This document shows, in pieces, positions 29,227 through 39,784 of a DNA stretch of 64,000 nt; position 1 is the stretch's first letter, and each line of letters starts with the position of its first letter. The DNA is from Methylotenera sp. G11 (GTDB lineage: Bacteria > Pseudomonadota > Gammaproteobacteria > Burkholderiales > Methylophilaceae). The notes beneath the pieces were generated by a model that did no database searches, was not told where the DNA came from, and saw only the letters and a list, made by a program, of their open reading frames with translations. A program made the position numbers and the translations under genes. The DNA is taken from assembly GCF_000799735.1 (NCBI RefSeq), contig NZ_JUHH01000001.1:868001-932000 (forward strand). Reading direction: 5' to 3'.

Positions 29227-30837
29227 ATGGCTGCACGAAATAAAAAACAAACAACTTCAGAACCATTAGAGAAACAACTTTGGAAAGCAGCCGATAAACT
29301 CCGCAAAAATATCGATGCGGCTGAATACAAACACATCGTTTTAGGTTTAATTTTTCTTAAATATATTTCAGACTCCTTCGAACAGCAGTTTGCCAAATTA
29401 TCAGAAGGCAAAGGCGAATACGCAGGTGCAGATCCGGAAGACAAAGACGAATACGCAGCTGAAAACGTGTTCTTTGTGCCACAGGATGCTCGTTGGAGCT
29501 ACTTGCAGTCACAGGCCAAGCAGCCAGATATCGGCAAACTGGTGGATGCCGCAATGGATGCCATTGAAGCCGAAAACGCCTCACTTAAAGGCGTGTTGCC
29601 CAAAGTGTTCGCACGCGATAATTTAGACCCAGCCAGCTTAGGTCAACTCATTGATTTAGTCGGCAATATTGCTTTGGGTGATGCCAAATCACGCAGCGCA
29701 GATGTACTTGGCCATGTGTTTGAATATTTTCTAGGTGAATTTGCGCTTGCAGAAGGCAAACAAGGCGGGCAGTTCTACACCCCGCGCTCAGTGGTTGAGT
29801 TATTGGTTGAAATGCTGGAGCCATACAACGGCCGCGTGTTCGACCCCTGCTGCGGCTCTGGGGGTATGTTCGTACAATCCGAAAAGTTTGTGGCAGACCA
29901 CCAGGGCCGTGTGAATGATATTGCCATCTACGGGCAAGAGAGCAACCAAACCACATGGCGCCTGGCTAAAATGAACCTTGCCATTCGCGGCATTGAAGCC
30001 AGCCAGGTGAAATGGAACAACGAAGGCAGTTTTTTAAACGATGCGCATAAAGACCTGAAAGCCGATTACATCATTGCCAACCCGCCTTTCAACGTGAGCG
30101 ACTGGTCAGGCGAACTACTGCGTAACGATGGCCGCTGGCAATATGGCGTGCCGCCCGCAGGCAATGCCAATTTTGCATGGCTGCAACACTTTATTTATCA
30201 TCTTTCACCACAAGGTCAAGCAGGCGTAGTGCTGGCTAAAGGCGCACTTACCAGCAAAACCAGTGGTGAAGGGGAAATACGCAAAGCACTAATTGAACAA
30301 GGCAACGTGATTGACTGCATCGTCAACCTGCCAGCCAAGCTTTTCCTCAATACGCAAATCCCCGCTGCGTTGTGGTTTATGAGCCGAAACCGTACTAATG
30401 GCAAATTTAGAAACCGCAGCAACGAGATGCTGTTTATTGATGCCCGCAACTTAGGGCACCTCATCAACCGCCGCACCAAAGAACTGAGCCACGAAGATAT
30501 TCGCAAAATCGCAGATACCTATCACGCATGGCGTAACCTACCCCGTCATTCCGCACTTGATGCGGAATCCAGCGAAAACAATCAAGCGCTGAGTGAAACT
30601 CAACCGCACACCTACCAAGACATCCCCGGTTTCTGTGCCTCCGTTAGTCTGGAACGCGTTAAAGAACTGGATTACGTGCTCACCCCAGGCCGTTATGTAG
30701 GCTTGCCAGATGATGAAGATGACTTTAACTTTGCTGAGCGCTTTAATGCCCTAAAAGCAGAATTTGAAGCGCAGTTGTTTGAGGAAGAAAAACTCAATAA
30801 AGCGATTGCAGAGAATTTGACGAGGGTGAAGCTGTGA
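29227..30837 (+). CDS. hsdM: Type I restriction-modification system, methyltransferase subunit
   Basis: 536 aa. HsdM N-terminal helical domain ([30 protein letters not shown]), SAM-binding motif [10 protein letters not shown] near residue 205, and the adenine-N6 catalytic NPPF at residues 285-288. With two HsdM and one HsdS it methylates the target site and, with HsdR, restricts unmodified DNA. Residues 440-449 ([10 protein letters not shown]) are encoded by a palindromic repeat inserted in frame in a C-terminal linker. Its GTGA end overlaps the hsdS start. Confidence 0.97.
30544..30573 (+). repeat. REP-like palindrome translated within hsdM
   Basis: CGTCATTCCGCACTTGATGC followed by GGAATCCAGC. 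ATTCCGCA (30548-30555) and TGCGGAAT (30561-30568) form the stem. Termini CGTCATTCC and GGAATCCAG match the intergenic element at 4205-4232, and the 30 bases keep the hsdM frame open. Confidence 0.8.
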
Positions 30838-32009
30838 GTGAGTGGCAGAAACTAACGCTCAGTCAAATTACTGAGCCAGTTAAAAACACTTACTTACCAA
30901 AAGGTGATGAACAACTGGCTTATATTGGACTTGAGCATATTGAACAAGAAACTCTTAGACTTACTGGAGTTGGCACATCATCAGATGTCACAAGTAATAA
31001 ATTCAAGTTTGAAGCTAATGATGTGCTTTTTGGAAAATTAAGGCCATATTTCAGAAAAGTCTACAAACCAAAATTCTCAGGTATTTGTTCTACTGACATT
31101 TGGGTCTTCAGAGCAAAAAATGGATTCATACAAGATTATTTATTTTATTTTTTAGCCTGTTGGGATTTTGTAGACACGGCAAACAGCGGTGAAGGTGGCA
31201 CTCGTATGCCACGCGCCGACTGGAACTTCCTTAAAACAACAAGCTGGCTTGTTCCCTGCGGAAAAGAACAAAAAGCCATTGCCTCAATCCTCAGCAGTTT
31301 GGATGACAAAATCGACCTGCTCCATCGTCAAAACACCACCATAGAACGCATGGCCGAAACGCTGTTCAGACAGTGGTTTGTAGAAGAAGCACAGGATGAC
31401 TGGGAATTTGTAGTACTAGGAAAATATATAGAATGTTTTAATGGCGTTTCGTACAAAAGCTCAGAGCTTAACCCATCAAAAGTGGCAATGGTTACATTAA
31501 AGAGCTTTGATAGAAATGGTGGCTTTAGATTAGACGGGTTTAAAGAATTCACTGGCAAGTTCAAAGAACAACATATTGTTACTCAAGGTGATTTGGTCGT
31601 GGCACATACAGATATTACTCAAGATGCAGAGGTTATAGGTAACCCTGTATTAGTCGTCAATAATGCAAGGTATGAGCTTATGGTTATTTCAATGGACTTG
31701 GTAAAAGTTAAGTCCAAACATGAATGGCTTTCAAACGAGTTTTTATATCGGATGATGCGAACCAGAGAGTTTAAAGAGCATTGCTTAGGTTATTCAAATG
31801 GATCAACGGTTCTACATTTAAGCAAACAAGCAATTCCAGCGTTTGAATTTTCCATGCCTCCAAAAGAGAAAATTGAAAGCTACACAAAGCTTACGAAAGA
31901 TTTATTTAATAAAAAATTTAAGAATATTGAACAAATCCAAACCCTAGAAAAACTCCGTGATACATTGCTCCCCAAGCTAATGAGCGGTGAAGTACGGGTA
32001 ACTATTTAA
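30834..32009 (+). CDS. hsdS: Type I restriction-modification system, specificity subunit
   Basis: 391 aa. Two target-recognition domains, each followed by a conserved coiled-coil: the central one around [20 protein letters not shown] and the C-terminal one around [20 protein letters not shown]. The TRDs determine the two halves of a bipartite DNA site, which cannot be predicted here. The starting codon is GTG, overlapping the hsdM stop. The second TRD region (about 31400-31950) is visibly AT-richer than hsdM, consistent with domain exchange. Confidence 0.95.
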
Positions 32010-32097
32010 GTATTAAATTATAAATAACTTATAAAATTATTTGCTTTTTTGTACATTTTATTCATAATTAACTTTTATTTTCAATTAAACACCTATT

Positions 32098-33363
32098 ATG
32101 TTGCTAGAATTCCGAGTTGGTAATTATCGCTCTATTCGTGATGAGGTGGTTTTTAGTTTTGTGGCATCAAGCGATAAAAAATTGCCGAATCATGTGATGG
32201 TTACCGGTTTGAAAGGTTTGCCAAGTGCGGTGCGTAGTGCTGCGATTTATGGTCCGAATGCGAGCGGTAAATCCACGTTGTTGTACGCATTTAACTACAT
32301 GCGTGCGGTGGTGGCTGAATCGGCAACTGCCATGCAGTTGGGGCAGGTTTTTAATGTTCAACCTTTTAAGTTAGATGCAGATTTTGCCAAGCGGCCGTCA
32401 ACATTTGAGTTGAGTTTTATTTTGGGTGGCATTCGTCATCAGTACGGGTTTGCCATTACGGCTGAACGTATTGTTGAAGAGTGGCTACTGGTTTATAAAA
32501 CAGCAAAGCCACAGCAGTGGTTCCGCAGAGTGTTTGACGATAAATCTCAGCATTACACATACAACTTCAGTAGCCATCTGGCCGGGCCGCGTAAGCTTTG
32601 GCAGGAGGCAACGCGACCTAATGCGTTATTTTTATCAACAGCGGCACAATTAAATAGTGAATTGTTGGGACCTGTGTTTCGCTGGCTGGTTGAGCAGCCT
32701 GTATATTTTGGTGCGGGTTTGGTGCCTTTGCCGGATTACACGACCGCACTTTTACAAAATGAAGCAGGTAAGAGCGCTGTGCGGGATTTTCTGATTGCGG
32801 CAGATATTAGTATTGCTGAAATATTGACTATACCGCGTCAGGGGTTTCATCAAAATATTGTGTTTAGCCCTGAGGGCACTCAGGTGACGCGTGAAGAAAA
32901 AGAATTGCTGATTCCACAGTTTGTGCATAAAACAGATAAAGGCGTTGCCAGTTTTGAGTTGCATGAAGAGTCAGAGGGTACGCAACGTTTATATGCGCTC
33001 GCAGCCCCCATACTGGATGTGCTGGAGCATGGGCGGATTTTAATTGTGGATGAACTTGATAGTAGTTTGCATCCCTTGTTAGTTCGTCAGCTAATTAGGC
33101 TGTTTAACAGCCTTGCGACTAACCCGAATGGCGCTCAGCTTTTGTTTACGACGCATGACACTTCGTTGCTGGATAAATCGCTGTTTAGAAGGGATCAAAT
33201 CTGGTTTACTGAAAAAAACCGTGATCAGGCGACATGTTTATATCCTCTTTTAGATTTTAGCCCACGTGAAACCGAGGCTTGGGAAAAGGGATATTTAATC
33301 GGGCGCTATGGTGCTGTACCGTTTTTTGATGTGCCTGATGTGGCATCGAATGCGTTGGGTTGA
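32098..33363 (+). CDS. RloA/AbiLi-like AAA ATPase
   Basis: 421 aa ABC/SMC-type ATPase. Starts with the typical LEFRVGNYRSIRDEVVFSF, Walker A YGPNASGKSTLL at about residues 51-62, Walker B ILIVDELDSSLHP and the H-loop LFTTHDTSLLD. Such AAA_21-type proteins pair with RloB-like TOPRIM proteins in phage defence (AbiL-type) and are found as R-linked ORFs in Campylobacter hsd loci. Here the partner starts five bases after its stop. The coiled-coil arms expected between the ATPase halves are short. Lower GC than flanking core genes. Confidence 0.88.
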   Translation: MLLEFRVGNYRSIRDEVVFSFVASSDKKLPNHVMVTGLKGLPSAVRSAAIYGPNASGKSTLLYAFNYMRAVVAESATAMQLGQVFNVQPFKLDADFAKRPSTFELSFILGGIRHQYGFAITAERIVEEWLLVYKTAKPQQWFRRVFDDKSQHYTYNFSSHLAGPRKLWQEATRPNALFLSTAAQLNSELLGPVFRWLVEQPVYFGAGLVPLPDYTTALLQNEAGKSAVRDFLIAADISIAEILTIPRQGFHQNIVFSPEGTQVTREEKELLIPQFVHKTDKGVASFELHEESEGTQRLYALAAPILDVLEHGRILIVDELDSSLHPLLVRQLIRLFNSLATNPNGAQLLFTTHDTSLLDKSLFRRDQIWFTEKNRDQATCLYPLLDFSPRETEAWEKGYLIGRYGAVPFFDVPDVASNALG

Positions 33364-33367
33364 CCAT

Positions 33368-34042
33368 ATGGGTAAGGATAATCAACCCAAAGTACGTCAG
33401 GCTGCACAGTTGGTACGTAAAAAAGGGCGAAGAGCCACTTATGACCGCGTGCTGATTGTTACAGAAGGTTCAAAAACTGAGCCCAATTATTTAGGCGAGA
33501 TACGCCGTGAACATAAGTTGCATACAGCTAATGTGCAGGTTGAGCCAAGTGCGTATGGAACATCGCCATTGCAGGTGGTTGTGTATGCAGAGCATCTTTT
33601 GATTCATGGTCATGAATCAAAACATATCGAGCCAAAAGCGTTTGAGTGTGTATGCGTAGTGTTTGATCGTGATGATCATGACAGCTATCACAATGCTTTG
33701 GCTAAAATAAGCGCAATCAATGGTAAGTATCTTAATGACAACAGAAAAAAGGTTGAATTTATAGCGATACCCTCCGTGCCATGTTTCGAGGTCTGGCTGT
33801 TGCTGCATTTTGAAGACATTCAAGCACCGATTCATAGAGATGAAGTTTATGAGCGGCTACGTACCTATCTTCCGGATTATGAAAAGGGGCGAGATGGCTA
33901 CTATGCAATGACTCAATCATCTCTGGATGTTGCAATAACAAGGGCAAATGCCTTAAGTCAAGTGAACAATGAGTATGATGGGGTTAATCCATATACGGCG
34001 ATGCATCAATTGGTGATGAAGTTAAAATCTTTAAAAAGTTAA
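33368..34042 (+). CDS. RloB/AbiLii-like TOPRIM protein
   Basis: 224 aa. RloB family signature: RVLIVTEGSKTEPNYLGEI (TOPRIM Glu), VCVVFDRDDHD (DxD), and IPSVPCFEVWLLLHFED. TOPRIM-type metal-binding residues suggest a nuclease held in check by the RloA-like ATPase. ATG 33368 is chosen, since an earlier in-frame ATG lies inside the upstream gene and gives a non-homologous tail. The basic N-terminus (KVRQAAQLVRKKGRRATYD) is a plausible nucleic-acid contact. Confidence 0.88.
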   Translation: MGKDNQPKVRQAAQLVRKKGRRATYDRVLIVTEGSKTEPNYLGEIRREHKLHTANVQVEPSAYGTSPLQVVVYAEHLLIHGHESKHIEPKAFECVCVVFDRDDHDSYHNALAKISAINGKYLNDNRKKVEFIAIPSVPCFEVWLLLHFEDIQAPIHRDEVYERLRTYLPDYEKGRDGYYAMTQSSLDVAITRANALSQVNNEYDGVNPYTAMHQLVMKLKSLKS

Positions 34043-34051
34043 GTGCATTTA

Positions 34052-35071
34052 ATGAAATTAAATAGTGAAATCGTGATTTACCAAAGCGATGATGGGCGCA
34101 TACGCCTAGAAACTCGCCTACAAAATGAAACGCTATGGATGACGCAAAGCCAAATGGCTGAGTTGTTTGGTTGCTCCGTCGACAATATTTCATTGCACCT
34201 TAAAAACATCTTTGAGGAAAACGAGCTGGTTGAGACGGCAACTTCCGAGGATTTCTCGGTAGTTCGTTTAGAGGGTGAGCGGCAGGTTTCACGTAATATC
34301 AAACACTATAACTTGGATGCAATTATCAGCGTTGGTTATCGCGTTAAAAGCGTGATTGCGACCCGCTTTAGAATCTGGGCAACGCAGCAGTTAAAAGAGT
34401 TCATCATTAAAGGGTTTGTGATGGATGATGAGCGGCTTAAAAATCCACCTGTTGGTAAGTCCGTTACCCCTGATTACTTTGCTGAGATGCTGGCGCGCGT
34501 ACGTGATATACGTGCAAGTGAGCGGCGTATGTATTTGCGGGTGCGTGAAATTTTTGCATTAGCCGCAGACTATGAGCCGACGCTGGCTGAAACTACCAGA
34601 TTTTTTAGCGTGATTCAAAATAAGCTGCATTTCGCTGCTACAGGTATGACCGCGGCTGAGCTAATTGCAAGCCGTGCAGATCATGCAAAACCCAATATGG
34701 GCTTAAGCACTTGGCAAAAAGATGCGGTACGCAAAACCGATGTGGTAATTGCCAAAAACTATCTCGCTGAAAATGAAGTGACTGAACTCAACCGTATTGT
34801 GACCATGTGGCTGGATTTTGCTGAAGACCAAGCCACAAGACGCAAGCAGGTGTTTATGAAAGATTGGGCAAACAAGCTGGATGATTTCTTAAAGTTTAAC
34901 GATAGAGCCGTGCTTAATAATGCAGGCAGTGTGAGCAAAAAACAGGCTGACGCAAAAGCGGGTGCAGAGTTTGAGAAGTTTGCTGAAACAAGGCGGGCTT
35001 TGAAAGAAAAGCAAGCTGAGGCTGATTACTTTAACCAGCTTTCGCAATTGGCAAAAGAAGACAAGAAGTAG
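34052..35071 (+). CDS. RhuM-family protein
   Basis: 339 aa. Family name from Salmonella RhuM; the N-terminal domain IVIYQSDDGRIRLETRLQNE, LWMTQSQMAELFGCSVDNIS (HTH-like) and LKNIFEENELVE are conserved, as is SVGYRVKSVIATRFRIWATQ. The C-terminus is a charged helical tail (KADAKAGAEFEKFAETRRALKEKQ-type sequence). The biochemical role is unknown; the family recurs inside hsd loci. ATG 34052 is chosen over GTG 34043. Placed nine bases after the RloB-like gene and seven bases before hsdR. Confidence 0.88.
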   Translation: MKLNSEIVIYQSDDGRIRLETRLQNETLWMTQSQMAELFGCSVDNISLHLKNIFEENELVETATSEDFSVVRLEGERQVSRNIKHYNLDAIISVGYRVKSVIATRFRIWATQQLKEFIIKGFVMDDERLKNPPVGKSVTPDYFAEMLARVRDIRASERRMYLRVREIFALAADYEPTLAETTRFFSVIQNKLHFAATGMTAAELIASRADHAKPNMGLSTWQKDAVRKTDVVIAKNYLAENEVTELNRIVTMWLDFAEDQATRRKQVFMKDWANKLDDFLKFNDRAVLNNAGSVSKKQADAKAGAEFEKFAETRRALKEKQAEADYFNQLSQLAKEDKK

Positions 35072-35078
35072 ATTAGGC

Positions 35079-38000
35079 ATGCAAAAGCTCACAGAATCCG
35101 CTATAGAAACCCTCGCAATTGAACGATTGCAAGCCCTTGGCTATGGCTATGTGTACGCCCCTGACATTGCACCCGATGCTGCAAACCCAGAGCGTGAGAA
35201 TTTTACCGATGTAATTTTAGATGAGCGTTTGCGTAAAGCGATTACCCGCATTAACCCCACCCTGCCCGCTGCCGCTTTAGATGAGGCTATTAAAACCATA
35301 CAACGCATCAACTCACCTGAGCTGCTGGCGAATAATGAGGCGTTCCACCGATTACTCACGGAGGGCGTGAATGTCAGCTACCAAAAAGATGGCAACACAC
35401 GTGGTGATTTAGTTTGGCTGATCGATTTTGCCAACCCGGACAATAATGAGTTTATGGTCGCGAACCAGTTCACCATTATTGAAAACAACCAGAATAAACG
35501 CCCGGATTTGATTCTGTTTGTAAACGGTTTGCCGCTGGTGGTGATTGAGCTTAAAAACGCAGCGGATGAAAACGCTACGGTTAAAACTGCTTATGAGCAG
35601 ATTCGCACGTATAAAACCAGTATCCCCGGTTTATTTACCTACAATGGTTTTGTGGTGGTGTCAGATGGTTTGGAAGCGCGAGCCGGAACCATATCGGCAG
35701 ACCTCAGCCGTTATATGGCTTGGAAAAGTGCCGATGGCAAAGCAGAAGCATCGCACCTTATCAGCCAGCTGGAAACACTGATTAACGGTATGCTGAACAA
35801 AGTCACGCTGCTGGATTTGATTCGCCACTTTATCGTGTTTGAAAAATCCTCCAAAGAAGACGCCAAAACCGGGCAGATCAGCATCAGTACGGTTAAAAAG
35901 CTGGCAGCCTATCACCAATATTACGCAGTGAATGCGGCGGTGATTTCCACCTTGAGGGCATCCGCAGAAGCAAATGGCGTGGCGCAAGACCCTGCCAGCT
36001 ATGGTTTGCCAGATGTGCGCACCCAGCCCAAGGGCGACCGCAAGGCCGGTGTGGTATGGCATACGCAAGGCAGCGGCAAGTCGCTGAGCATGGTGTTCTA
36101 CACGGGCAAGATCGTTTTAGCCCTGAATAACCCGACCGTGGTGGTGATTACCGACCGCAATGATCTGGATGACCAGCTGTTTGATACCTTTGCCGCATCC
36201 AGCCAATTGCTGCGCCAGGAGCCCAAGCAGGTGGAAGATCGCCAGCAGTTAAAAGATCTGCTCAAAGTGGCCTCTGGTGGCGTGATTTTTACCACCATAC
36301 AGAAATTTCAGCCAGAAGAAGGCAATGTGTATGAAACGCTATCCGAGCGTCGTAACATTGTGGTGATTGCCGATGAGGCGCACCGCACCCAATATGGCTT
36401 TAAGGCCAAAACCGTAGAGGATAAAAATGCAGCCGGTGAAGTCATCGGCCAAAAGATTGTGTATGGTTTTGCCAAATACATGCGCGATGCCCTGCCCAAT
36501 GCTACATACCTGGGCTTTACCGGCACGCCAATTGAAAGCACCGATGTGAATACGCCGGCGGTATTTGGCAATTATGTGGATATTTACGATATTGCCCAAG
36601 CCGTGGAAGATGGCGCAACAGTACGCATCTATTACGAAAGCCGTTTGGCCAAAGTGCAGCTTTCCGAAGAGGGCAAAAAACTGGTTGCGGAGTTGGATGA
36701 AGAACTGGAGCAGGACGAGCTCAGCGAAACACAAAAGGCCAAAAATCGCTGGACGCAAATTGAGGCACTGATTGGCAGTGAAAAGCGCATTCAGAATATC
36801 GCGCAGGATATCGTCACCCACTTTGAGCAGCGTCAGGAAGTGTTTACCGGCAAAGGCATGATTGTGAGCATGTCGCGCCGCATTGCCGCTGCGCTGCATG
36901 CTGAAATCATTAAAATCAAACCTGAGTGGCATTCAGATGACTTAAACAAAGGTGTAATCAAAGTGGTGATGACCGCTTCATCCAGCGATGGCCCGGAACT
37001 TGCCAGGCACCACACTACCAAACAGCAGCGCCGCAATCTTGCCGAGCGCATGAAAGACCCGGACGACGAACTAAAACTGGTAATTGTGCGTGATATGTGG
37101 CTAACCGGTTTTGATGCGCCAAGCATGCATACGCTCTACATCGACAAGCCTATGAAAGGCCATAATCTGATGCAGGCGATTGCTCGTGTGAACCGTGTCT
37201 ATGGTGACAAGCCCGGTGGCTTGGTGGTGGATTATCTAGGTATTGCTGCCGATCTCAAGCAAGCCTTATCGTTCTATTCCGACGCCGGCGGCAAGGGTGA
37301 CCCAGCCGAAACGCAAGAACAGGCCGTGAACCTGATGCTGGAGAAACTGGAAGTCGTCGCCAATATGTTTCATGGCTTTGATTACAAGGCTTACTTCACG
37401 ACAGATACCTCTAAAAAGCTCTCGCTGATCTTGGCGGCTGAAGAGCATATCCTGAATATTGAAGATGGCAAAAAACGCTACATTAACGAAGTCACCTTGC
37501 TATCCCAAGCATTTGCCATTGCAATTCCCCATGAACAAGCCATGGATGTGAAAGATGAAGTGGCTTTCTTCCAGGCGGTGAAGGCGCGGCTGGCTAAATT
37601 TGACAGCACAGGCGAAGGCAAAACCAACGAAGAAATTGAAACCACGATTCGTCAGGTGATTGATAAAGCCCTGGTTTCGGAACAAGTGATTGATGTGTTT
37701 GATGCCGCAGGTATTAAAAAGCCGGATATCTCTATTTTGAGTGACGAGTTTCTGCTTGAACTTAAAAACCACGAGCATAAAAATATTGCGTTGGAAGTGC
37801 TAAAAAAACTGCTCAATGAAGAAATCAAAATACGCGAACGGCTGAATGTGGTGCAAGGCCGCAGCCTGATGGAAATGCTGCAGAACTCGATCAAGCGTTA
37901 TCAGAATAAAATCATCACTGCCGCTGAACTGATGGATGAGCTGATTAAAGTCAGCAAAGAAATTGTGCATGGCGACACTGAAGCTGAACGCCTGAAACTC

Positions 38001-38282
38001 AACCCGCTGGAGTTTGCTTTTTATACCGCCGTAGCCAATAACAATAGCGCAAGGGAGTTGATGCAGCAGGATAAGCTGCGTGAACTGGCTGTGGTGTTGC
38101 TGCAAAAAGTACGTGAAAATGCAAGCATCGACTGGACGATCAAGGAAAACGTAAAAGCGAAACTAAAAGTTATCGTAAAGCGCACACTCCGGCAGTTTGG
38201 CTATCCGCCTGATATGGAGATACTGGCAACGGAGACTGTGCTGAAACAGGCTGAGATGATTGCGGCTGAACTTCAACACTAA
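35079..38282 (+). CDS. hsdR: Type I restriction-modification system, restriction/translocase subunit
   Basis: 1067 aa. N-terminal PD-(D/E)xK nuclease (RPDLILFVNGLPLVVIELKNA), followed by a SF2 translocase: Walker A HTQGSGKSLSM, DEAH-like VIADEAHRTQYG, and motif III GFTGTPIESTD; motif VI lies in MQAIARVNRVYG. The C-terminal helical domain (about 780-1060) docks on HsdM. It pumps DNA through the complex and cuts it far from the site. Full length with no frameshift seen, so the system appears intact. The stop is at the end of the defence block. Confidence 0.96.
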   Translation: MQKLTESAIETLAIERLQALGYGYVYAPDIAPDAANPERENFTDVILDERLRKAITRINPTLPAAALDEAIKTIQRINSPELLANNEAFHRLLTEGVNVSYQKDGNTRGDLVWLIDFANPDNNEFMVANQFTIIENNQNKRPDLILFVNGLPLVVIELKNAADENATVKTAYEQIRTYKTSIPGLFTYNGFVVVSDGLEARAGTISADLSRYMAWKSADGKAEASHLISQLETLINGMLNKVTLLDLIRHFIVFEKSSKEDAKTGQISISTVKKLAAYHQYYAVNAAVISTLRASAEANGVAQDPASYGLPDVRTQPKGDRKAGVVWHTQGSGKSLSMVFYTGKIVLALNNPTVVVITDRNDLDDQLFDTFAASSQLLRQEPKQVEDRQQLKDLLKVASGGVIFTTIQKFQPEEGNVYETLSERRNIVVIADEAHRTQYGFKAKTVEDKNAAGEVIGQKIVYGFAKYMRDALPNATYLGFTGTPIESTDVNTPAVFGNYVDIYDIAQAVEDGATVRIYYESRLAKVQLSEEGKKLVAELDEELEQDELSETQKAKNRWTQIEALIGSEKRIQNIAQDIVTHFEQRQEVFTGKGMIVSMSRRIAAALHAEIIKIKPEWHSDDLNKGVIKVVMTASSSDGPELARHHTTKQQRRNLAERMKDPDDELKLVIVRDMWLTGFDAPSMHTLYIDKPMKGHNLMQAIARVNRVYGDKPGGLVVDYLGIAADLKQALSFYSDAGGKGDPAETQEQAVNLMLEKLEVVANMFHGFDYKAYFTTDTSKKLSLILAAEEHILNIEDGKKRYINEVTLLSQAFAIAIPHEQAMDVKDEVAFFQAVKARLAKFDSTGEGKTNEEIETTIRQVIDKALVSEQVIDVFDAAGIKKPDISILSDEFLLELKNHEHKNIALEVLKKLLNEEIKIRERLNVVQGRSLMEMLQNSIKRYQNKIITAAELMDELIKVSKEIVHGDTEAERLKLNPLEFAFYTAVANNNSARELMQQDKLRELAVVLLQKVRENASIDWTIKENVKAKLKVIVKRTLRQFGYPPDMEILATETVLKQAEMIAAELQH

Positions 38283-38376: not shown

Positions 38377-39324
38377 TTATTCATTAGCATTGACCGGCTT
38401 TGGGGAACAGGTCATGATATATTCAGCAAGAATACAAAACATCGCTAGAAGCGCAAATAGCCAACCAATATTAACAGACACATTGCCATGACCTGCAGGA
38501 GGCAACTTCTCTAAACTCGTTGTTAGATTTTTTTGCGTATCTGCTCTTGTATAGCTTGCGCCAATCTCATTGGCTAGCTCTTTTAAATAACCTTCACGTA
38601 AAGCTGATAAGTAATATTCATTAGGATCAGAGGCAATGGAGTCATCACGTTTCCCAACCGAGTCTTCATTCACTATCTGGCTGGGCTCTATCTTAATCGC
38701 ATAATGCGACCAGTATCCTATTACTTCATCTTTGCTGTTAAATTTGGGCACTGGTGAAGGCTTATCTGAGCCTACACCCGCTAATAGCCAACTGCTACTT
38801 CCTTGCATGGGAGTCAAATCAACTTTGGTAATCGCATTCAGTGGGGCGGCCTCATCGCCATCGGTAAAAAAAATAATCTGGGTAGGTTCCGGCATCAATA
38901 GCAGTACACTTGTCGCGTTCAGCAAAGCCAAACGCAGGTGACTACTTCCCCGCCAAGCCATACGCCACTCGATGTGACTTAATGTGTCATCCAGAATGTC
39001 AAAGTTCGAACAAACTTCGATCGGGATATATAGCGGTACAATTTCTGCGTTGGAAAATAAGGCGATACTGACTTTAGTACCGCATGACAGGTCTTTAATC
39101 GTGCTCCTCAAGAGCTGTAAGGTGTAATTTAACCTGCTGACAGATACGTTATTAAATTGCATGTCTTCCACATTCATGCTTTGCGTGATATCCACCACAA
39201 ACATGTAATGCCGAAAGTCTCTGGGTAAATCTACTTTGGGATTCCATATGGCTATGGCCAGCCCTATCAGGGCCAGCCATAAATATGTACCGTTACTTAC
39301 CAAACGTAAGTGCAGTGGGCTCAT
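38377..39324 (-). CDS. Membrane-anchored VWA-domain protein (MxaL-like)
   Basis: 315 aa from ATG 39324 (25 upstream in-frame codons overlap the preceding gene and were rejected). Membrane helices at about 12-28 (NGTYLWLALIGLAIAIW) and at the C-terminus (IGWLFALLAMFCILAEYIM) flank a von Willebrand A domain. The MIDAS motif is D45-x-T47-x-S49 (VVDITQSMN), with IIFFTDGDEA later. Segments LSCGTKVSIALFS, PIEVCSNF and EWRMAWRGSS resemble MxaL of methanol-dehydrogenase clusters as I remember it, but no mxa gene is near. Role: assembly or metal loading is only a guess. Downstream 95 bases to hsdR are convergent. Confidence 0.75.
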   Translation of the reverse strand: MSPLHLRLVSNGTYLWLALIGLAIAIWNPKVDLPRDFRHYMFVVDITQSMNVEDMQFNNVSVSRLNYTLQLLRSTIKDLSCGTKVSIALFSNAEIVPLYIPIEVCSNFDILDDTLSHIEWRMAWRGSSHLRLALLNATSVLLLMPEPTQIIFFTDGDEAAPLNAITKVDLTPMQGSSSWLLAGVGSDKPSPVPKFNSKDEVIGYWSHYAIKIEPSQIVNEDSVGKRDDSIASDPNEYYLSALREGYLKELANEIGASYTRADTQKNLTTSLEKLPPAGHGNVSVNIGWLFALLAMFCILAEYIMTCSPKPVNANE

Positions 39325-39343
39325 TAAAATTCTGCGATCAAAA

Positions 39344-39784
39344 TTAAGCTCTATTGAAGGTTGATCGCAGAACGTAAACAGCCGCCTTACCGAAACCATA
39401 GCTGGTGATCAGAATACTGGCAAATAAGTAAAACTTAAACCATTCTGGCGGCGGTATTGTTGGGCTATCCAATCCGGGGAAGACAGCCATCAATAGAAAC
39501 AAGCTGGAGTTGGTAAATGCCCCCACAACCATTGCCCAACGCACATGCCAAGGCAATGGCACTTTGGTTGCATATACCCCTAGAATCAGTGCCGTCATTA
39601 ACAGAAAATCAATATGTGCCTGCAATAAACGTGTGAACTTGCCAGCAAAGATCGACTGGAGCGGTTCTACCCCAAAATTCAAACCGACCATGCACCAGGC
39701 TAATAACAACGCCATGAGTAACCACAGTGCGGCACCGCGAATCAGAACAACATTTCCAGCATACTTTCGGTCTTCTTGTAACAT
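39344..39784 (-). CDS. Small four-helix membrane protein, possibly SOI-fold
   Basis: 146 aa with four predicted membrane helices: about 12-36, 56-74, 82-102 and 118-140. Not firmly recognised. The order of features (RKYAG at the N-terminus, RLLQAHIDFLLM with H57 in helix 2, TNSSLFLL in helix 3) is reminiscent of the styrene oxide isomerase family, where a helix-2 His binds heme. This is from memory and weak. The VWA gene follows after 19 bases, and the AraC gene is divergent. Confidence 0.6.
   Translation of the reverse strand: MLQEDRKYAGNVVLIRGAALWLLMALLLAWCMVGLNFGVEPLQSIFAGKFTRLLQAHIDFLLMTALILGVYATKVPLPWHVRWAMVVGAFTNSSLFLLMAVFPGLDSPTIPPPEWFKFYLFASILITSYGFGKAAVYVLRSTFNRA

What the first reader, a model, noticed from the sequence alone, without database searches (positions are those of the whole stretch)
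29227..38282. Type I RM locus with an ATPase/TOPRIM pair and a RhuM protein nested inside
hsdM and hsdS are split from hsdR by three genes with minimal spacing: RloA-like ATPase, RloB-like TOPRIM protein and RhuM. All frames are intact and same-strand, so one transcript could carry two or more defence functions. RloA/RloB and RhuM were named from or found in hsd loci (Campylobacter R-linked ORFs), so the arrangement has precedents, but how the nested genes act with the RM enzyme is not settled. The region is visibly AT-richer than flanking DNA.
Basis: partly seen in the sequence, partly recalled or inferred. Interest (0 to 1): 0.75.

Follow-up and report, generated by a model that had tools for sequence, protein, structure and literature searches.

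The report
Restriction operon with a swappable slot
A bacterial operon for cutting foreign DNA carries, between its recognition gene and its cutting gene, a slot that in related bacteria holds many different anti-virus gene sets; here it holds an abortive-infection-type gene pair, with a conserved promoter-like element of its own, plus a RhuM gene.

Summary
The six-gene locus is real: hsdM-hsdS-[AAA ATPase-RloB/TOPRIM]-[RhuM]-hsdR, frames open, one strand. The pair matches AbiLi/AbiLii, RhuM matches candidate PDC-S05. The kind is known: defence genes embedded in type I RM, with hsdS-hsdR already called a potential hotspot (PMC12255303, passages). Added here: (1) the slot is conserved, the occupant is not: 48 of 53 examined loci with related HsdR hold same-strand genes between hsdS and hsdR, 23 of 23 where HsdR is at least 70% identical; occupants include Kiwa, AbiE, HicAB, HerA+PDC-S42, Fic. 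(2) Remnants of replaced cargo persist, and one cargo block moved while hsdS specificity differed. (3) The AbiL pair has no RM-type neighbour in 29 of 32 loci with long flanks and carries a conserved upstream element, also when nested. (4) RhuM/Fic genes favour the place next to hsdR (11 of 14 multi-gene slots, 5.7 expected; 13 of 16 after correction). Best reading: a cassette-exchange port holding a semi-autonomous abortive module. A PrrC-like guard is possible, not supported. No function was tested.

The parts
29227..30837 (+). hsdM, type I N6-adenine DNA methyltransferase subunit
   Evidence: PF02384 9e-106, HsdM_N; DPCCGSGG and NPPF visible in the translation
30834..32009 (+). hsdS, specificity subunit (GTG start)
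   Evidence: PF01420; PADLOC Specificity_I 2.3e-80 over 1-390; its central piece and 3' tail align at DNA level with relatives, the recognition regions mostly do not
32010..35078 (+). cargo slot between hsdS and hsdR, 3069 bp here
   Evidence: 48 of 53 related loci hold same-strand ORFs of 75 aa or more here
32033..32080 (+). conserved promoter/operator-like element upstream of the ATPase gene, ending 17 nt before its ATG
   Evidence: profile from relatives (window and L032 left out) scores 40.7 here; best of 977 other 130-nt stretches of the window 3.6
32098..33363 (+). AbiLi/RloA-like AAA_21 ATPase, Walker A GPNASGKST
   Evidence: PF13304 7e-43; PADLOC AbiLi 1.6e-98
33368..34042 (+). AbiLii/RloB-like TOPRIM-type protein
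34052..35071 (+). RhuM family protein (PDC-S05), 7 nt before hsdR
   Evidence: PF13310 9e-112; PDC-S05 2.9e-154; winged-helix-like N-terminal region in a weak AF2 model
35079..38282 (+). hsdR, type I restriction/translocase subunit
   Evidence: HSDR_N, SWI2_SNF2, ResIII, T1RH-like_C; PD...ELK and DEAH visible in the translation

Best explanation
The junction between hsdS and hsdR of this type I RM family is a cassette-exchange port. Recombination between conserved flanks (hsdS 3' tail on one side, hsdR 5' end on the other) replaces the cargo while hsdM and hsdR persist (mosaic and remnants are shown; the recombination mechanism is inferred). Here the port holds an AbiL-type pair that brings its own promoter/operator-like element, and a RhuM gene packed against hsdR. 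Most likely working (inferred): HsdMSR is the first line and cuts unmodified phage DNA; AbiL is a second, abortive line in which the ATPase holds the TOPRIM effector inactive until infection is sensed, then frees it to damage nucleic acid and stop the cell; RhuM is a further toxin-like or regulatory unit co-transcribed with hsdR. Same-strand placement lets hsd transcription add to expression of the pair without being required for it.
For: 48 of 53 loci with same-strand cargo in hsdS-hsdR against 6 of 48 with a gene in hsdM-hsdS (Fisher 2e-16). Slot ORFs of at least 120 aa: 116 same strand, 6 opposite (two of the six only shadow RhuM-type genes); first gene after hsdR 28/22. Different occupants on one backbone. 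Remnants: KwaA N-terminus (26 aa, 85%) right after hsdS in L018 and a RhuM tail there (34 aa, 53%), a c272 tail in L123, truncated RhuM in L118, frameshifted RhuM in L016; antitoxin tail fused to an unrelated protein in L016/L019. L016 against L019: 95% over a 4785-column cargo block while hsdM is 86%, hsdR 92% and most of hsdS does not align. EcoAI-type control: R-M junction 0 of 12, S-R junction 4 of 5. AbiL pair without an RM-type neighbour in 29 of 32 loci with 5 kb on both sides, with the same upstream element. A toxic AbiLii effector is reported (PMC10440598 passages); an ATPase holding a TOPRIM effector is reported for PARIS (PMC12409363 passages).
Against: Loci were chosen for HsdR identity and contig length, not at random; gene calls are mechanical. 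The window and L032 AbiL pairs are sisters (SH-aLRT 99 in a short search, L032 on a long branch), so nesting of AbiL here may be one old event, not repeated swapping of this module. The subclade holding the window pair is richer in RM-type neighbours (window, L032, L035, L036, L039, L040 of 11 members; four of the other five lie on contigs under 5 kb; L036 only by DUF4391), which could mean a specific tie. The RM search used few query types and would miss others. Nothing here shows defence, toxicity or transcription.
Confidence: 0.72

Rival explanations
1. PrrC-like guard: the ATPase/TOPRIM pair (and perhaps RhuM) is bound and silenced by this HsdMSR enzyme and released when a phage anti-restriction protein inhibits it.
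For: PrrC is embedded in the EcoprrI type I locus, silenced by it and activated by T4 Stp (passages of PMC3710099, PMC2610378, PMC12707154). Nesting in one operon; RM-type neighbours in the window's AbiL subclade.
Against: 29 of 32 AbiL loci with long flanks show no RM-type gene within 6 kb (limited query set). The same backbone carries unrelated cargo elsewhere, and cargo persists while hsdS differs (L016/L019). No HEPN-type domain among the Pfam matches of the pair.
Confidence: 0.13
2. PARIS-like trigger: the pair senses anti-restriction proteins directly, without touching HsdMSR, so lying in an RM operon is useful but not mechanistically needed.
For: PARIS, also an ABC ATPase plus TOPRIM pair, senses Ocr and works without EcoKI (PMC9122126 passages; PMC11455837 whole text). 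AbiL pairs lie beside type I, type III and type ISP genes in different genomes.
Against: By family it is AbiLi/AbiLii, not AriB/DUF4435. AbiL triggers are unknown here. 29 of 32 long-flank copies show no RM-type neighbour.
Confidence: 0.22
3. Plain defence-island clustering: the slot is only a place where insertion does little harm; order and strand carry no meaning.
For: Defence genes cluster in general; hsd loci of relatives lie in other genomic places (10 flanking proteins of the window locus tested, one match in one of 12 family loci).
Against: Strand and junction bias with internal controls; RhuM/Fic bias to the hsdR side.
Confidence: 0.12
4. Expression spacer: cargo between modification and restriction genes delays or lowers HsdR, protecting new hosts during transfer; which cargo it is matters little.
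For: Cargo sits between M-S and R in M-S-R order and not between R and M in R-M-S order; RhuM also lies between mod and res of a type III locus (L035).
Against: Many slot genes are defence or toxin-antitoxin families with open frames, more than a spacer needs; L140 and L141 do without cargo.
Confidence: 0.12

Closest known systems
DarTG2 embedded in a type I RM locus of EPEC (RptR island; PMC12255303, passages seen)
   Same: Toxin-type defence module between hsdS and hsdR; the authors note another gene pair at the same place in four genomes and call the site a potential recombination hotspot
   Different: There a dedicated repressor RptR heads the island; here the cargo is AbiL + RhuM with a control element before the cargo. 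I did not search for RptR here
PrrC in EcoprrI (type IC RM; passages of PMC3710099, PMC2610378, PMC12707154)
   Same: Abortive module embedded in a type I locus, ATPase-controlled effector; that prrC lies between hsdS and hsdR is recalled
   Different: PrrC is one protein with a HEPN anticodon nuclease domain, silenced by the RM enzyme; here two proteins, TOPRIM-type effector, no shown contact with HsdMSR
AbiL of Lactococcus (Deng 1999, cited in PMC10440598, not read)
   Same: Bicistronic ATPase + RloB/TOPRIM pair; both window proteins match its PADLOC models
   Different: Plasmid-borne there; nested in an hsd locus here
PARIS (PMC9122126 and PMC12409363 passages, PMC11455837 whole text)
   Same: ABC ATPase sensor plus TOPRIM effector
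   Different: AriB is DUF4435; window RloB matches PF13707 and AbiLii only
Campylobacter rlo genes in hsd loci (Miller 2005, cited in PMC10440598 and PMC2610378, not read)
   Same: Rlo-type genes linked to type I RM loci
   Different: Other organism; the original was not seen, so no closer comparison is made

Membership tests
Type I restriction-modification system | HsdM, HsdS and HsdR all present with open frames and domains | tested here: met
Type I restriction-modification system | methylation and restriction activity | not testable with these tools
   needs a methylome and a restriction assay
AbiL (AbiLi/AbiLii) | adjacent AAA/ABC ATPase and RloB-family (PF13707) genes | tested here: met
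   PADLOC AbiLi 1.6e-98, AbiLii 1.6e-26; PF13304, PF13707
AbiL (AbiLi/AbiLii) | TOPRIM-type acidic residues in the effector | tested here: met
   E39, D106 and D108 (numbering of P0001) invariant in 31 relatives; that these are catalytic is inferred
AbiL (AbiLi/AbiLii) | TOPRIM fold of the effector | tested here: inconclusive
AbiL (AbiLi/AbiLii) | phage-triggered abortive infection | not testable with these tools
   no assay
PARIS | effector of the AriB (DUF4435) family | tested here: not met
   RloB has one Pfam (PF13707) and one PADLOC (AbiLii) match
PrrC/RloC anticodon nucleases | HEPN-type nuclease domain fused to the ATPase | tested here: not met
PrrC/RloC anticodon nucleases | silencing by the linked RM enzyme | not testable with these tools
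   needs co-purification and genetics
RhuM (PF13310) / PADLOC candidate PDC-S05 | profile match over most of the protein | tested here: met
   PF13310 9e-112 over 67-318; PDC-S05 2.9e-154 over 5-340

The most novel reading that the evidence does not exclude
The AbiL pair carries an operator that its own ATPase binds, so the module is autoregulated and DNA-bound at rest; phage DNA mimics that defeat the neighbouring RM enzyme would pull the ATPase off this DNA, inducing the pair and freeing the TOPRIM effector in one step. The modification/restriction junction of RM operons (hsdS-hsdR in type I, mod-res in type III) would then be a general port for modules that respond to loss of restriction.
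Probability: 0.07. Interest if true: 0.88.

Novelty: new member of a known kind. Interest (0 to 1): 0.48.

Why it matters
In the papers seen, embedding of defence genes in type I RM loci appears as examples and as a discovery route. Here one RM backbone is followed through related species: in the close clade the slot is occupied in every locus where it could be seen, with varying cargo and remnants of earlier cargo. That turns 'potential hotspot' into something countable and gives a search rule: unknown same-strand genes between hsdS and hsdR (or mod and res) are good defence candidates (for example c272, c160 and c330 here, without Pfam or PADLOC match). The conserved element before the AbiL genes, kept on rhizobial plasmids at about 46% protein identity, offers a direct handle on how an ATPase/TOPRIM abortive system is controlled.

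Tried and rejected
Palindrome as a co-varying operator or hairpin: in many loci the element looks like TTTTGCA-N7-TGCATAA, but a covariation test over 70 ungapped sequences gave nothing beyond other centres (best pair z 3.2 at this centre, up to 4.4 elsewhere). The element is conserved; the palindrome is not proven.

Empty site or shared flanks for the window locus: none found. Of 10 flanking proteins only one matched, in one (L016) of 12 family loci. Homologues of ORF84, the gene before hsdM, are in 11 of 52 genus genomes; in six stretches fetched around them none lies by hsdM, but in L175 one lies 1.2 kb beyond an hsdR end.

Rfam: no match in the window; tRNA genes none. A generic sigma-70 scan did not list the element on the plus strand; no terminator-like site lies in the 88-nt gap.

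Pattern error: the IUPAC pattern is one base short between its first two boxes, so its single match (32034-32079, 3 mismatches; no other in the own genome, 0 for the reversed control) is shifted in the first box; the profile is the sounder test.

Element not found or weak: absent in Psychrobacter plasmid L185 and Klebsiella phage L187, weak in Variovorax L180 and Spirosoma L186; L007, L009 and L054 do not fit the fixed spacing.

Gene-caller errors found on checking: in L117 and L147 an open RhuM-Fic frame directly before hsdR had been hidden by an over-long hsdR ORF, and L127, counted as without cargo, holds a truncated RhuM-Fic on the same strand. The printed counts are kept; corrected figures are given beside them. 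A 40-nt RhuM-like tail before hsdR in L013 (edge of an alignment) is too short to count.

Literature: ten searches. No listed title or abstract start concerned an element upstream of rloA/abiL; most subscription papers and the Payne 2024 preprint are not held, so this is weak evidence of absence.
Full report
What is there. Six open frames on the plus strand, 29227-38282, encode HsdM, HsdS, an AAA ATPase, an RloB-family TOPRIM-type protein, RhuM and HsdR. hsdM and hsdS overlap by 4 bp; the ATPase-RloB, RloB-RhuM and RhuM-hsdR gaps are 4, 9 and 7 nt; hsdS-ATPase is 88 nt and AT-rich. The ATPase has Walker A GPNASGKST; RloB has EG.KTEP and FDRD motifs invariant in 31 relatives. The pair is AbiL by PADLOC models; RhuM is PADLOC candidate PDC-S05. 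The genome is one 2,545,099-bp contig. It lies in the same family as genomes whose contig lengths are those of Methylophilus aquaticus (92,702 bp) and Methylovorus mays (843,251 bp), hence probably Methylophilaceae; the species is not established.

Is the order conserved? RloB occurs in 7 of 187 family genomes, related HsdR (E up to 1e-30) in 37 of 187. I fetched 14 HsdR loci from the 53 rows, 10 from the 39 and 30 from the 60, favouring high HsdR identity and long contigs; with the window that makes 55 loci with HsdR, 53 with hsdS visible. No other locus has all six genes in this order; L020 (M. aquaticus) has hsdM-hsdS-RloA-RloB-hsdR. Yet 48 of 53 have a same-strand ORF of 75 aa or more between hsdS and hsdR, and all 23 of those with HsdR at least 70% identical. 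The five without are L127, L129, L140, L141 and L143; L140 and L141 are strictly adjacent, and L127 proved to hold a truncated RhuM-Fic.

What fills the slot. By Pfam and PADLOC on single representatives: KwaA and KwaB with a GHKL-type ATPase (L022), DUF3644/PDC-S19, RAYT, HTH and PIN (L013), DUF3800/PDC-M04A with PDC-M04B, DUF6088 and RhuM (L014), HerA-like ATPase, PDC-S42 and RhuM-Fic (L019), SLFN_AlbA_2 (L012), AbiEi and AbiEii (L015), HicA and HicB (L018), PIN and HicB (L021), Abi_C and Fic (L030). The same labels in other loci rest on profiles made from these. c272, c160 and c330 matched no Pfam or PADLOC family. RhuM, RhuM-Fic or Fic is the last gene before hsdR in 11 of 14 multi-gene slots that contain one, 5.7 expected from its share of genes; with L117 and L147 added after checking it is 13 of 16, about 6.5 expected (sum by hand). 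L016 and L019 are not independent.

Junction and strand controls. Genes between hsdM and hsdS occur in 6 of 48 of these loci. Slot ORFs of 120 aa or more are 116 same-strand and 6 opposite, of which two (L127, L147) only shadow RhuM-type genes; the first gene after hsdR is 28/22 and the last before hsdM 32/15. For a second HsdR family (EcoAI type) I fetched 20 of the 64 rows: 12 have order R-M-S with a gene in the R-M junction in 0 of 12 and in M-S in 4 of 12; 5 have order M-S-R with same-strand cargo in S-R in 4 of 5; 3 were not resolved. So the hsdS-hsdR junction is special, and not only in one HsdR family; the second set is small.

How cargo is exchanged. In 15 locus pairs compared, the parts that align at DNA level are hsdM, a central piece of about 140-170 nt of hsdS, the hsdS 3' tail and hsdR, plus shared cargo, remnants and REP-like repeats (two pairs involve loci without visible hsdM and hsdS). 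L016 and L019 share HerA, PDC-S42, c160 and RhuM at 95% over a 4785-column block that starts in the hsdS tail, while hsdM is 86%, hsdR 92% and most of hsdS does not align; L016 has RhuM frameshifted and L019 has one gene more, RhuM-Fic, before hsdR. Remnants: L018 begins its slot with the first 26 residues of KwaA (85% to L022), cut by a REP-like palindrome, and holds a RhuM tail (34 aa, 53%), though its genes now are RAYT-HicA-HicB; L123 keeps a c272 tail (22 aa, 91%) beside its own c272 gene; L118 and L127 hold truncated RhuM. The c160 protein of L019 ends in the last 15-20 codons of the HTH antitoxin of other slots (alignment scores 23-32, shuffles at most 15), a recombination footprint.

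The AbiL pair is a mobile module. Of 80 named-genome loci (the best 80 of 246 confirmed), 10 show an RM-type gene within 6 kb, 3 of the 32 with 5 kb on both sides; L086 is a weak match and L036 has DUF4391 only, and the query set was limited. In a 78-row tree (short search, SH-aLRT only) the window pair and L032 (the same locus as L020) are sisters (99), inside an 11-row clade (99) in which L035, L036, L039 and L040 also have RM-type neighbours. L035 and L039 have helicase, DUF4391, RloA, RloB and a type III mod; in L035 RhuM then lies between mod and res, overlapping res by 4 bp. On three of the five rhizobial plasmids fetched (L181, L182, L184) the pair directly precedes a methyltransferase gene, annotated type ISP in L181, and in a Klebsiella phage of the Peduoviridae it lies beside the portal gene. 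RloB identity of window to L020 is 66% and RloA 71%, against 89% for HsdR.

A conserved control element. Upstream of rloA, 73 loci align on AAAATAA, a weak TTGA, TTTTG, GCATAAT and TATT at near-fixed spacing, 70 of 73 without gaps. The best 20 columns hold 28.2 bits, 6.0-12.7 in five shuffled sets, 39.7 for the first 100 coding nt. A profile made without the window and L032 scores 40.7 in the window, next best 3.6 among 977 stretches, and 46.9 in L020, the same locus as L032. In nine further plasmid or phage records the stretch before rloA is the best of its locus in 7, with 16-17 nt to the start used in the five rhizobial ones (in L181 the annotated start is 60 nt further on; L182 and L184 are near-identical there), and is absent in 2. 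In the rhizobial copies the -10-like CATAAT is lost while AAATARATTG and the two TGC half-sites stay, which a plain sigma-70 promoter would not explain. A covariation test of the inverted repeat was negative. The pair thus travels with its own control element; what binds it is unknown.

Mechanism. AbiL is described as a bicistronic system acting through the toxic TOPRIM effector AbiLii (PMC10440598 passages). In PARIS the ATPase hexamer holds TOPRIM AriB until an anti-restriction protein binds (PMC12409363 passages; PMC11455837 whole text), without needing EcoKI (PMC9122126 passages). PrrC shows that an embedded module can be silenced by its RM enzyme. I take an AbiL-type abortive line as most likely, give a PARIS-like trigger 0.22 and a guard of this HsdMSR 0.13; these are judgements. 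RhuM was proposed as a toxin acting beside RM and PrrC-like proteins, often fused to Doc (PMC3710099 passages); the Fic fusion seen here agrees.

Novelty. Embedding in type I loci, the hsdS-hsdR site as a potential hotspot (PMC12255303 passages), the multi-pronged idea (PMC3710099 passages) and discovery by embedding (Payne 2024, cited in PMC12255303 and PMC12988326, not read) are in print. This locus is a new member of that kind. Not met in the searches made are the counts on one backbone, the remnants and the element before the AbiL genes.

Noticed in passing
window 32033-32080 and about 70 relatives: Conserved promoter/operator-like DNA element upstream of rloA/abiLi, also on rhizobial plasmids; binding factor unknown.
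   Followed up: partly
L018, L021, L023 just after hsdS; RAYT in L013, L018, L021, L023, L120: REP-like palindromes directly after the hsdS stop and RAYT (Y1_Tnp) genes recur in the slot; they may help cargo insertion or loss.
   Followed up: partly
L035 4566-17182; L039 1053-8999; L091; L093: RloA-RloB directly before a type III mod gene; in L035 RhuM lies between mod and res.
   Followed up: partly
L181, L182, L184 (rhizobial plasmids): RloA-RloB directly upstream of a methyltransferase gene, annotated type ISP restriction/modification enzyme in L181.
   Followed up: no
L187 (Klebsiella phage ST13-OXA48phi12.1): An RloA-RloB pair beside portal and terminase genes of a Peduoviridae phage.
   Followed up: no
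L012 10675-11984; L112, L114, L123, L131; L031 11136-12128: Slot proteins c272, c160 and c330 match no Pfam or PADLOC family; candidates for new defence genes.
   Followed up: no
G125 contig 71 (L008/L009, L028): A RloB copy split by an in-frame stop in a same-genus genome; pieces described only.
   Followed up: no
window 38377-39784: VWA-domain protein and neighbour on the minus strand after hsdR, in the same low-GC stretch; related proteins in 49 of 52 genus genomes.
   Followed up: partly
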